Part shown: piece by piece, positions 2 to 49,647 of the stretch
Layout of the letters: each line of letters begins with the position of its first letter
Position numbering within the stretch: the first letter of the stretch is position 1
Source: Micromonospora cabrerizensis
GTDB lineage: Bacteria; Actinomycetota; Actinomycetes; Mycobacteriales; Micromonosporaceae
Reading direction: 5' to 3'
NCBI RefSeq assembly: GCF_022230955.1
Contig: NZ_JAKKFI010000052.1
Location: forward strand, 1-64,000
DNA: 64,000 nucleotides
The notes under the pieces: model-generated
Database searches by the model: none
Seen by the model: the letters and a program-made list of their open reading frames with translations, nothing else
What the model was told of the DNA's origin: nothing
Position numbers and translations under genes: made by a program

Positions 2-3000
2 GCGGAGTGCACCTCGGCCAGGCCGCGTCCGTTGCTGGACGAGGTGTTCACCCCGGTCGAGGAGGTGACCGGGCAGAGCACCTTCCTCGACGGGCTCAAC
101 GCCACCGAACGCGCCAAGCGGCTCCTGGACGTCGTGCGCACCGAGGCGGTCGCCGTGCTCGGGTTGGGCGGCGTCGCGGACATCGGCACCGACCGGCCCT
201 TCCGCGAACTCGGCTTCGACTCGCTGACCGCTGTGGAACTCCGCAACCGACTGGTCACCACGACCGGTCTGCACCTGCCGTCCAGCGTCGTCTTCGACTA
301 CCCGAACGCCGCCACGCTCGCCGGTCACCTGGCCGCGCTGCTCGGCACCGACGACAGTGCCACCGCGGAGACGCGCGAGACGATCACCGCCAACGAGCCG
401 ATCGCCATCGTCGGCATGGCCTGCCGATACCCCGGCGGGGTCGGTTCGCCGGAGGACCTGTGGCGACTGGTCGACACCGGCACCGACGCCGTCTCCAGTC
501 TCCCCGCCGACCGAGGCTGGGACCTCGACGCTCTCTACGACGCCGACCCGGACGCCCGCGGCACCTCGTACGCGGCGGCCGGCGGCTTCCTCGACGGCGT
601 GGCCGACTTCGACGCCCGGTTCTTCGGCATCTCGCCCCGCGAGGCGCTCGCCATGGACCCGCAGCAGCGCCTGCTGCTGGAGACGTCCTGGGAGGCGGTG
701 GAACGGGCCGGCATCGACCCGACCGCCCTGCGCGGCACCCACACCGGCGTCTTCACCGGCACCAACAGCCACGACTACCCGACCCTGCTGATGGCGGCGC
801 CGGACGCCGTGGAGGGCTACCTGGCCACCGGCAACGCCGCCAGCGTCATCTCCGGCCGGGTGTCGTACGCGCTGGGCCTGGAAGGGCCGTCCGTCTCCGT
901 GGACACCGCCTGCTCGTCGTCACTGGTCGCGTTGCACCTGGCCGCCCAGGCACTGCGGTCCGGTGAGTGCGACCTCGCCCTCGCCGGCGGTGCGATCGTG
1001 ATGGCCACACCGGGCACGTTCACCGAGTTCTCCCGCCAACGTGGCCTCGCCGCCGACGGCCGGTGCAAGTCGTTCGCCGCCGCCGCCGACGGCACCGGCT
1101 GGGCCGAGGGCGTGGGTGTCCTGCTGGTGGAACGCCTCTCCGACGCCCGACGCAACGGCCACCAGGTCCTCGCCCTGGTCCGCGGCAGCGCGATCAACCA
1201 GGACGGCGCCTCCAACGGCCTGACCGCCCCGAACGGCCCGGCGCAACAACGGGTGATCCGGGCGGCTCTCGCCGCCGCCGACCTCACGACCGCCGACGTC
1301 GACGCGGTCGAGGCGCACGGCACCGGCACCGTCCTCGGCGACCCGATCGAGGCGCAGGCGCTGCTGGCCACCTACGGTCAGGACCGCCCGAAGGACCAAC
1401 CGCTGTGGCTCGGCTCGATCAAGTCGAACATCGGGCACTCGCAGGCCGCCGCGGGCGTCGCCGGGATCATCAAGATGGTCGAGGCGATGCGACACGAGAT
1501 CCTTCCGCGAACCCTGCACGTCGACGAGCCGACCCCGCACGTGGACTGGTCCGTCGGCGCGGTGGAACTCCTCACCGAAGCGCGACCGTGGCCGGCCGGC
1601 GACCGCCCGCGCCGGGCCGCCATCTCCTCGTTCGGCATGTCCGGCACGAACGCTCACGTGATCATCGAGGAGCCACCGGCCACCGCCGACGACAACGCGT
1701 CGGCCCCGCACCGGCCGCAGGCGGGCATCGTGCCGTGGACGCTCTCCGCGCGCAGCCCCGGCGCGCTGCGCGACCAGGCCGCGCGCCTGCTGACCGGGGT
1801 GACCGGCGAGGACCAGCCGGACGCGATCGACGTCGGGCACTCACTGGCCACCACCCGCGCGGCGCTGACCGAGCGCCTGGTGGTTCTCGGCCCGCAGCAC
1901 GCCGACGTCCTGGCGGCGGCCGCGGCCGGCAAGCCGGCCGCGGGCCTGGTGACCGGCGAGACCACCGACGGCAAGCTGGCCTTCGTCTTCTCCGGTCAGG
2001 GTTCACAACGGCCCGGCATGGGCCTGGACCTGGTCGAGGCCTTCCCGGTGTACGCGGACGCGTTCGACGCGGTCTGCGCCGAGCTGGACCTCCACCTCGA
2101 CCGGCCGATCCGGGACGTGACCGCGCACGACGCGGAGGCCCTGGACCAGACGGTCCACACCCAGGCGGCGCTGTTCGCGGTCGAGACCGCGCTCTACCGG
2201 CTGGTCGAGTCGTTCGGGGTGACCCCGGACTACCTGGTGGGGCACTCGATCGGGGAGATCGCCGCCGCGCACGTGGCCGGGGTGCTGTCCCTCGCCGACG
2301 CGGCGAAGCTGGTCGCGGCCCGGGGCCGGCTGATGCAGGCACTCCCGGCCGATGGCGTGATGGTCGCCGTACGCGCCACCGAGGCGGAGGTGCTGCCGCT
2401 GCTGACCGACGGGGTGTCCGTCGCGGCGGTCAACGGTCCGCGCTCGGTGGTGCTGTCCGGCGTGGAAGGTGAGGTCGCCGCCGTCGCCGCCCAGTTCGAG
2501 AAGTCGAAGCGGCTGCGGGTCAGTCACGCGTTCCACTCGGTGCTGATGGAGCCGATGCTGACGGAGTTCGCGCAGGTCGCGTCGACGTTGACCTACGGGC
2601 AGCCCCGGATTCCCGTGGTGTCGAACCTGACCGGGCAGATCGCCGGGACGCAGGACGCCGGTTACTGGGTGCGGCACGTGCGGGAGGCGGTCCGCTTCGC
2701 TGACGGGATCGCCACCCTGGAAGCCGCGGGCGTGACCACGTTCGTGGAGATCGGCCCGGACGGGGTCCTGTCCGCGATGGGCGCGGACTGCGTTGCGGAC
2801 GCGGTGTTCGTACCCGTGCAACGCTCCGACCGCGACCAGGCCACCTCGCTGCTCACCGCCCTCGCTCAGGTCTTCGTGCGCGGCGTCGCGGTCGACTGGA
2901 CGCCGTGCTACCCCGGCGCGCGGCGCGTCGACCTGCCCACCTACGCCTTCCAGCACGAGCGCTACTGGCCGGACACCGCGCGGCCCGCCGCCCCCGGCCA

Positions 3001-48700: not shown

Positions 48701-49647
48701 TCCGCCACCGTCTCAGCGCCGCCACCGGTCTCACCCTGGCCCCCGGTCTGCTCTTCGCCCACCAGGACCCGGACCGGCTGGCCCGGCACCTGATGGCGGA
48801 GATGGCCGGGACGAGCGCGGCCCCGCCGGCCACCACCCTGGACGTGATGTTCCGGCAGGCGCGCCACCGCGACGACCTGCACGAGTACACGACACTGCTG
48901 ATGCGGCTGGCCGAGTACCGGCCGAGCTTCACGGCAGCCGACGTGGACGAGGGGCGGGTGGCCGTACCCGCTCTGGCGCGCCTGGCCGAGGACGGCGGCG
49001 GCCCACGGATCATCGCCTGCTGCACCACCTCGCTGATGGCGGGCCCGCAGGAGTACGCCCGGCTGGCCGGCGCCCTGCGTGACCGGTACCGGATCTCCGC
49101 CCTGGTCAACCCCGGTTACCAGGAGGACGAGCCGGCCCCCGCCGACCTGGCCGCCGCGCTGCGACTCCAGGTCCGGGCGATCCGCGCGGACGTCGGCGCC
49201 GAGCCGTTCATCCTGCTCGGACACTCGGCCGGCGGCCTGGTCGCCAACGCCCTCGCCGCCGAGCTGGAGGCCGACGGCGTCGGTCCGGCCGCCGTGGTGC
49301 TGCTCGACTCCTACCCGCCGGCCGACGCGGTGCTCGGCCGGTGGATACCCGAACTGCTCGACGGCCTGGACCTGGACGCCGCCAGTGTGGCCGACCAGCG
49401 GTATCTCGCCTGGGCGTCCTACGTGCGCCACTACGGCGACTTCGAGCCGCTGCCCACCAGCGCACCGACCCTGCTGGTCCGCGCCGGGGAGCCCCTCGGC
49501 ACGGTGCCGGACGACCGCGACTGGCGGCCGTCCTGGCAGCACCCGCACACCGTGGCCGACGCCACCGGAAACCACTTCACCATGGTCGGCGACCAGGTCG
49601 ACCGCACCGCGCAGACAGTGCACGACTGGCTGGCCGCGACCCTCTGA
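45793..49647 (+). CDS. Terminal type I PKS: KS-AT-ACP-TE
   Basis: A 1284-aa protein that begins 13 bases after the previous stop, with GGGGAG at 45781-45786. Domains: KS (Cys202), AT about 560-860, ACP (LGVDSV, Ser964) and a C-terminal thioesterase with GHSAGG (Ser1145), Asp1172 and His1261 as the likely triad. No reductive domain lies between AT and ACP, so the last beta-carbon should stay a ketone. The TE resembles macrolide-forming thioesterases and should release the chain, most likely by macrolactonisation; the attacking hydroxyl cannot be told from here. The AT has GHSTGE and HALH (743-746) where malonyl ATs usually have HAFH. Malonyl is the best guess, but another extender is possible. 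The N-terminus ([20 protein letters not shown]) is a docking helix distinct from the other subunits, like that of the final pikromycin synthase protein as I recall it. Confidence 0.95.

What the first reader, a model, noticed from the sequence alone, without database searches (positions are those of the whole stretch)
2..49647. Ten consecutive modules predict an unassigned polyketide with a 3-keto/7-hydroxy end
Reading AT and reductive domains in order gives, from the carboxyl end: C3 ketone, C5-OH (L), C6-Me, C7-OH, C8-Me, C9-OH, C10-Me, C10-C13 diene, C14-Me, C15 ketone, C16-Me, C17-OH, C18-Me, C19 methylene, C21-OH (L). A C3 ketone four carbons from a C7 hydroxyl could close a six-membered hemiketal. 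With the loading and two further modules on the last gene, at least twelve extension modules are implied. I could not match it to a compound I know with confidence.
Basis: partly seen in the sequence, partly recalled or inferred. Interest (0 to 1): 0.65.

Follow-up and report, generated by a model that had tools for sequence, protein, structure and literature searches.

The report
Acetate-primed relative of quinolidomicin synthase
The window holds the end and the beginning of one very large bacterial enzyme assembly line, 28 chain-extending steps in all, whose final third is built like that of the quinolidomicin line but whose starter and early steps differ, so it probably makes a related giant macrolide that has not been identified.

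Summary
The ten modules and their domain calls are confirmed. The window is nearly a whole contig, cut inside a PKS gene at both ends. Three complete genomes of the same genus carry the cluster unbroken: 12 PKS genes, one KSQ loading module, 28 extension modules, one integrated TE. Docking-domain types and elimination give the order H-I-J-K-X1-X2-B-C-D-E-F-G.

The order of the last nine modules and their gene division parallel the end of the quinolidomicin PKS, which has one extra ATm/KR module. Sequence similarity in register is above chance (0 of 100,000 permutations), though only 4 of 8 modules tested rank their partner first. Loading module (KSQ-AT, not CoA-ligase), module count and earlier modules differ. 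It is a sister of that line, not the same cluster.

The product is unidentified. The 3,7-hemiketal is possible but untested. The C15 ketone is well supported, the C19 methylene probable. AT domains show a GRINS-type gene-conversion pattern, yet their predicted class is unchanged at 29 of 29 positions in the three complete genomes.

The parts
2..5098 (+). Gene A, 3' end of a four-module PKS gene (X2): ACP of module 18, then module 19 KS-AT(malonyl)-KR(A-type)-ACP; gives C20-C21, C21-OH
   Evidence: full gene in G162, G321 and G300
5142..11558 (+). Gene B, module 20 KS-AT(methylmalonyl)-DH-ER-KR-ACP; C18-Me, C19 probably CH2 (KR 10239-10781 has catalytic Ser->Ala)
11592..20969 (+). Gene C, modules 21 and 22, both AT(methylmalonyl)-KR; KR21 B2-type; KR22 (19701-20231) Lys->Arg and Ser->Ala, hence C15 ketone
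21008..31669 (+). Gene D, modules 23 (malonyl, DH-KR) and 24 (methylmalonyl, DH-KR): C10-C13 diene, C10-Me
31669..36522 (+). Gene E, module 25 AT(methylmalonyl)-KR(B2): C8-Me, C9-OH
36552..45779 (+). Gene F, modules 26 (methylmalonyl, KR B1: C6-Me, C7-OH) and 27 (malonyl, KR A-type: C5-OH); C-terminal docking domain of a second type, shared in this line only with gene I
45793..49647 (+). Gene G, module 28 KS-AT(HALH, malonyl-like)-ACP-TE; no KR, hence C3 ketone; TE 49003-49644 releases the chain
49676..50434 (+). Free-standing type II thioesterase; 59% identical to one in the quinolidomicin-type region of G189
50478..51248 (+). ABC transporter ATPase; nearest NCBIfam model DrrA, below its cut-off
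51233..53182 (+). Protein overlapping the ATPase gene, probably its membrane partner (inferred from position and hydrophobic sequence); no Pfam or NCBIfam match
53240..54490 (-). Cytochrome P450; CYP105AS1 among the nearest solved relatives; the only P450 found in the parts scanned
54717..64000 (+). Gene H, 5' part: loading module KSQ-AT(malonyl)-ACP, module 1 KS-AT(methylmalonyl)-KR-ACP, module 2 KS-AT... (runs off the contig; three extension modules in relatives, where the KSQ motif reads DAAQAS)
6721..7650 (+). GRINS-type repeat in AT of module 20
27751..28770 (+). GRINS-type repeat in AT of module 24

Best explanation
One collinear cis-AT type I PKS of 28 extension modules, split over 12 proteins, builds a C58 polyketide with nine methyl branches. 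KSQ on H decarboxylates malonyl to an acetyl starter. The chain passes H(1-3)-I(4-6)-J(7-9)-K(10-13)-X1(14,15)-X2(16-19)-B(20)-C(21,22)-D(23,24)-E(25)-F(26,27)-G(28), and the TE of G releases it, most likely as a macrolactone. Predicted from C1: C3 ketone, C5/C7/C9 OH, C10-C13 diene, C15 ketone, C17 OH, C19 CH2, C21/23/25/27 OH, C28 ene, C31 OH, C33 ketone, C35 OH, C36-C43 tetraene, C45/C47 OH, C48 ene, C53/55/57 OH, with methyls at 6, 8, 10, 14, 16, 18, 30, 46 and 56. The line is a sister of the quinolidomicin PKS: same order in the final nine modules (quinolidomicin has one extra ATm/KR module), different loading module and different earlier modules. One P450 may add one oxygen. Shown by sequence: architecture, conservation, homology of the terminal block. 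Inferred: order K->X1, reductive outcomes, lactonisation, hemiketal.
For: The same 12-gene, 29-module (loading + 28) architecture occurs unbroken in three complete genomes, and eight G000 contigs tile it. There is one KSQ (DAAQAS) and one TE fused to a PKS protein. A second docking-domain type occurs C-terminally only on I and F and N-terminally only on J and G; H shows no N-terminal docking sequence. The domain order of the last nine modules and the gene division match the tables of PMC8698034 and a cluster in G189 with an AMP-binding loading domain. Post-AT sequence, pairs set by architecture: partner ranks first for m20, m23, m24 and m25; sum of bits 5261 against permuted mean 4131 (sd 366), 0 of 100,000 reach it. 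KR subtypes agree at m21/q25 and m25/q29 (YAP), m26/q30 and m27/q31. TEII 59%, PPTase 59% and acyl-CoA carboxylase 72% identical. The degenerate KR13 has the highest dN/dS of 27 KRs (0.37); KR20 is low (0.11), ER20 0.13, DH20 mid-range among ten DHs (0.25).
Against: No product is known. In the window, m21 (2nd of 18), m22 (6th), m26 (8th) and m27 (3rd) do not rank their partner first, perhaps because modules recombine. KS and AT domains give no register. At m22/q26 the KRs differ: q26 keeps Lys and LDD, so the C15 ketone need not be shared with quinolidomicin. K->X1 rests on elimination, not on a specific docking code. KR22 is constrained (dN/dS 0.16) although it lacks two catalytic residues, so it may keep a role. 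The DH of module 11 lacks the YGPxF pattern in 3 of 3 genomes and the DH of module 10 lacks HxxxGxxxxP in one of three, so the tetraene may be shorter. The list of solved relatives of the TE also holds the tautomycetin TE, whose product is linear (recalled). In G000 itself most of modules 17 and 18 (7.4 kb) and three stretches of 0.5-0.7 kb are missing.
Confidence: 0.82

Rival explanations
1. Two independent assembly lines lie side by side: X1-G (15 modules, TE) and H-K (13 modules, KSQ).
For: The two sets are separated by TEII, ABC and P450 genes, and K->X1 is the only junction not between neighbours.
Against: X1-G has no loading module and H-K has no TE; each supplies what the other lacks. 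Both sets occur together in 4 of 4 carriers. The quinolidomicin-type line of G189 has loading module and TE in one run, and the second docking-domain type joins the gene ending in q10 to the gene holding its polyene block, as I to J here.
Confidence: 0.08
2. It is the quinolidomicin cluster itself, misjudged because of assembly gaps.
For: Same terminal domain order and gene division; related TEII, PPTase, acyl-CoA carboxylase and LAL regulators.
Against: Complete genomes show KSQ-AT-ACP loading (not CoA-ligase), 28 extension modules instead of 32 in G189, and four consecutive malonyl DH-KR modules instead of three. TE identity to the window is 48% in G189 but 84-96% in the three other carriers.
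Confidence: 0.03
3. The cluster makes a compound that is already described but whose genes have not been linked to it, or were linked in a source not held here (a subscription paper or MIBiG).
For: Most assembly-line PKSs are unassigned: 437 of 8799 are linked to a product (PMC10394414, passages). Large Micromonospora macrolides such as neaumycin B exist. The neaumycin gene-cluster paper is not held and MIBiG cannot be searched here.
Against: As recalled, neaumycin B has a conjugated ester at C1, not a C3 ketone. Text searches for 28 modules and for 46- to 58-membered macrolides gave no match in their listings.
Confidence: 0.2

Closest known systems
Quinolidomicin (qmn/qnm) PKS, Micromonospora
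   Same: Domain order of the last nine modules, gene division D/E/F/G, KR types at most of those positions, docking-domain types, a degenerate KR at the end of the gene before the X1-like one, TEII, PPTase, acyl-CoA carboxylase, LAL regulator
   Different: KSQ-malonyl loading instead of CoA-ligase; 28 extension modules instead of 32 in the G189 cluster (published totals 33 and 34 seem to include the loading module); no module equivalent to q24; different early modules; P450, ABC membrane protein and methylmalonyl-CoA mutase genes without a match in the 260 kb of G189 examined
DEBS and PikAIV thioesterases
   Same: TE domain aligns over its length; nearest solved sequences are DEBS TE (E 5e-49), with tylactone and PikAIV TEs following
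   Different: Chain about four times longer; ring size unknown
FD-891 loading module GfsA (KSQ-AT)
   Same: Best-scoring solved relative of the loading module is a GfsA KSQ-AT chimera (FD-891 recalled)
   Different: Unrelated assembly line otherwise (recalled)
Irumamycin/venturicidin hemiketal macrolides
   Same: Precedent for a hemiketal ring in a macrolide released by a TE from a type I PKS (PMC11672594, passages)
   Different: 20-membered, 12 modules; a double-bond shift is proposed there; no sequence comparison made here
[quoted passage not shown]
   Same: Repeats of about 0.5-2.3 kb in AT, KS and KR regions with high GC and TA skew and high identity within the cluster (definition from PMC10394414 passages)
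   Different: Here the exchange leaves the predicted AT class unchanged at 29 of 29 positions in three genomes

Membership tests
cis-AT modular type I PKS | KS-AT-ACP core in each module, loading module and releasing TE | tested here: met
   28 extension modules plus KSQ-AT-ACP and one fused TE
Quinolidomicin biosynthetic cluster | CoA-ligase/ACP loading module | tested here: not met
   KSQ (DAAQAS)-AT-ACP in gene H; comparison cluster in G189 has an AMP-binding domain
Quinolidomicin biosynthetic cluster | 32 or more extension modules | tested here: not met
   28 in each of three complete genomes against 32 in G189
Quinolidomicin biosynthetic cluster | Terminal series ATmm/DH/ER/KR ... ATmm/KR-ATmm/KR | ATm/DH/KR-ATmm/DH/KR | ATmm/KR | ATmm/KR-ATm/KR | ATm...TE, related by sequence in register | tested here: met
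   order; sequence: 0 of 100,000 permutations, partner ranked first for 4 of 8 modules tested
Quinolidomicin biosynthetic cluster | Extra ATm/KR module between ATmm/DH/ER/KR and the two ATmm/KR modules | tested here: not met
   absent in window gene C and in three complete genomes
Quinolidomicin biosynthetic cluster | Quinone chromophore in product | not testable with these tools
   needs the compound; the starter domain argues against it
Neaumycin B cluster | Gene and module order of the neu cluster | not testable with these tools
   cluster paper not held; only passages of other papers seen
GRINS | At least 500 bp, over 80% identity to another part of the PKS, mean |GC| and |TA| skew over 0.15 (criterion of PMC9899208; blastn used here in place of its aligner) | tested here: met
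   2 of 16 high-identity regions on the window contig, 13 of 52 in the G321 cluster
3,7-hemiketal macrolide | Ring closure between C3 ketone and C7-OH in product | not testable with these tools
   module 28 lacks KR, module 26 KR has its catalytic residues; chemistry not testable

The most novel reading that the evidence does not exclude
A second giant-macrolide family in this genus, primed with acetate, shares an ancestor with the quinolidomicin line. The two kept a common C1-C19 head while the starter and the middle were exchanged. The product, about C67H110O19 (plus one oxygen if the P450 acts), is undescribed. Gene conversion keeps reshuffling AT domains only within their substrate class, so the structure is held fixed.
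Probability: 0.6. Interest if true: 0.55.

Novelty: new variant of a known kind. Interest (0 to 1): 0.45.

Why it matters
It turns a ten-module fragment into a complete, testable assembly line with predicted mass, chromophore and substructure. It also supplies a natural comparison: two giant lines with a related tail but different starter and middle, which bears on how such lines exchange front ends. Together with AT exchange that leaves the predicted class unchanged in three genomes, it bears on whether GRINS diversify or merely homogenise. The target is concrete for strain work: none of 26 flank proteins scanned from three genomes is a glycosyltransferase (not every flank ORF was scanned), there is one P450, and precursor-supply genes lie beside the cluster.

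Tried and rejected
Quinolidomicin identity was rejected (loading module, module count). Two separate lines were judged unlikely. Demurilactone A, found by a ring-size search, was rejected: 15 modules (first of three parts of the text read). Neaumycin B could not be tested; the cluster paper is not held. Naming the organism failed: the one genome-contig scan gave 10 relatives of the ABC membrane protein at 35-43% identity, and the tool says that records near the window's genome may be left out. The 68% relative of that protein in G084 has no PKS in the 140 kb fetched. A TE search of named plasmids gave 62 records, all under 60% identity. Contig overlaps alone gave part of the chain; the complete genomes settled it. 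Modules 1-19 could not be put in sequence register with quinolidomicin modules; best matches are scattered, and I claim no orthology there beyond similar architecture. KS and AT domains do not give register either. Ten text searches listed no paper that I recognised as describing a 28-module cluster of this order. The library holds open-licence papers only, three listings were cut (15 of 54, 8 of 9, 20 of 35), and I opened only some of the papers. In G189 the AT class of modules q4 and q5 could not be read.
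Full report
What is there. The window is bases 1-64000 of a 64,064-base contig. Both ends lie inside PKS genes. Downstream come a type II thioesterase, an ABC ATPase with an overlapping protein of no known family, a P450 on the other strand, and the start of gene H with a loading module. In the three complete relatives its KS active site reads DAAQAS, a KSQ.

Domain calls. AT motifs and clustering support malonyl for modules 19, 23, 27 and 28 and methylmalonyl for 20, 21, 22, 24, 25 and 26. Rules used: HAFH malonyl and YASH methylmalonyl (PMC10301374, passages); KR typing by LDD and YxP (PMC11672594, passages); W for A-type and the places of the catalytic residues are recalled. 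KR22 has Arg for Lys and Ala for the catalytic Ser, so a C15 ketone is expected. KR20 has Ala for the same Ser but keeps Lys, Tyr and Asn. In dN/dS over three genomes KR20 is among the lowest (0.11), its ER is 0.13, and its DH is mid-range (0.25 in a range of 0.15-0.39). The degenerate KR13 is the highest of 27 KRs (0.37), and KR22 is ordinary (0.16). The quinolidomicin-type module matched to m20 has the same Ser->Ala change (q23), and so does q26, matched to m22, which keeps its Lys and LDD. I keep C19 as methylene with moderate confidence. KR22 may keep some non-reducing role.

The complete line. A search of 200 family genomes with the protein at 51233-53182 found a 94% match in a complete genome of the same genus, G162. 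There the genes lie in one run of 12 PKS genes with 28 extension modules and a loading module. The TE domain has close relatives in 4 of 160 genomes of the genus (G000 itself, G321 96%, G300 88%, G162 84%) and in 4 of 354 of the family at E 1e-100, all of the one genus. G321 and G300 have the same 29-module order. Eight G000 contigs tile the G321 cluster at 92-95% identity in their main alignments. Missing in G000 are 7.4 kb between C81 and C82 (most of modules 17 and 18) and three stretches of 0.5-0.7 kb.

Order of action. H carries the only KSQ and shows no N-terminal docking sequence; G carries the only fused TE. A second docking-domain type occurs at the C-termini of I and F only and at the N-termini of J and G only (I judged the types by eye). 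With neighbours paired, K and X1 are left for each other. This last junction is inferred.

Predicted product. Reading the table in that order gives a C58 chain with nine methyl branches: seco acid C67H112O20 (1236.775), macrolactone C67H110O19 (1218.764), plus O 1234.759. It has 15 hydroxyls, three ketones (C3, C15, C33) and eight alkenes. Modules 8-11 predict a tetraene, but the DH of module 11 lacks the YGPxF pattern in 3 of 3 genomes and that of module 10 lacks HxxxGxxxxP in one of three. The ring-closing hydroxyl is not predictable. The TE is nearest to DEBS, tylactone and PikAIV TEs among solved structures; the tautomycetin TE, with a linear product as recalled, comes lower.

Relation to quinolidomicin. 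Tables 2 and 3 of PMC8698034 (passages seen, Table 3 only in part) list the quinolidomicin-type line. The order of its last nine modules and their gene division repeat window genes B-G, with one extra ATm/KR module. The TE search had also shown more distant TEs, 47-50% identical, in 27 of 160 genomes. I fetched one of these, G189. Its PKS genes follow the published order of Table 2 (the AT class of q4 and q5 could not be read), with an AMP-binding loading domain and 32 extension modules; the other 26 were not examined. I paired modules by architecture and compared the regions after the AT domain. Window modules 20, 23, 24 and 25 rank their partner first, 21 second, 27 third, 22 sixth and 26 eighth among modules of the same architecture; the sum of scores exceeds all of 100,000 permutations. 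KR subtypes agree at m21, m25, m26 and m27, not at m22; docking types agree. TEII, PPTase and the fused acyl-CoA carboxylase are 59, 59 and 72% identical to counterparts in the G189 region, and the LAL regulator 40% to two there. No match at 1e-10 to the P450, the ABC membrane protein, the ABC-2 protein or the methylmalonyl-CoA mutases appears in those 260 kb. Modules 1-19 show no clear sequence register. The conclusion is common descent of the terminal part and a different front, not identity.

Recombination. For 47 of 87 AT domains in three complete genomes the nearest relative is a paralogue in the same genome, not the orthologue, against 12 of 87 KS, 3 of 81 KR, 0 of 30 DH and 7 of 87 ACP. 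Synonymous divergence rises with GC skew for ATs (rho 0.71, 29 domains of G321) and also for KS (0.60) and KR (0.60), so the link is not special to ATs. By the published criterion, run here with blastn, 13 GRINS lie in the G321 cluster and 2 on the window contig (criterion and definition from PMC9899208 and PMC10394414 passages). Both edges of the missing 7.4 kb, and the edges of two of the three smaller gaps, fall in GRINS. The predicted AT class is nevertheless the same at 29 of 29 positions in three genomes. Since the two AT classes share only about 38% identity, exchange between classes is in any case unlikely.

Flanks. Upstream lie SARP and LAL regulators, an ABC-2 transporter protein and a DUF5988 protein; downstream lie methylmalonyl-CoA mutase subunits, a PPTase and a fused acyl-CoA carboxylase (G300; G321 and G162 in part). 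They suit a line using nine methylmalonyl units. None of the 26 flank proteins scanned in these three calls is a glycosyltransferase or a P450.

Verdict. The system is a new variant of a known kind.

Noticed in passing
window 6721-7650, 27751-28770, and cluster-wide in G321: AT domains evolve in concert (GRINS pattern): the nearest relative of 47 of 87 ATs is a same-genome paralogue, yet the predicted class is the same at 29 of 29 positions in three genomes.
   Followed up: yes
window 10239-10781: KR of the fully reducing module 20 lacks its catalytic Ser (Ala) in four genomes and in the matched quinolidomicin-type module, yet has a low dN/dS.
   Followed up: partly
window 51233-53182: Protein beside the ABC ATPase matches no Pfam or NCBIfam family; a 68% relative sits in G084 with no PKS in the 140 kb examined.
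   Followed up: partly
L087 2027-7510 (G300), L010 13225-18678 (G000 contig C84): A single-chain acyl-CoA carboxylase of about 1,820 residues (biotin carboxylase, carrier and carboxyl transferase fused) lies beside the cluster and, 72% identical, near the quinolidomicin-type cluster.
   Followed up: partly
L086 16502-20000 (G300): Two methylmalonyl-CoA mutase subunit genes directly follow PKS gene K.
   Followed up: partly
G189 contig C1 6379440-6385460 (L096-L097), module q32: The TE module of the quinolidomicin-type cluster keeps a weak, degenerate KR; none was detected in module 28 of the window line.
   Followed up: no
L078 8440-19382 (G321): Beyond the carboxylase lie a chorismate-binding enzyme, an SDR, an AMP-binding-like protein, an amidohydrolase, an ATP-grasp ligase and an MFS protein, perhaps a separate small biosynthetic cluster.
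   Followed up: no
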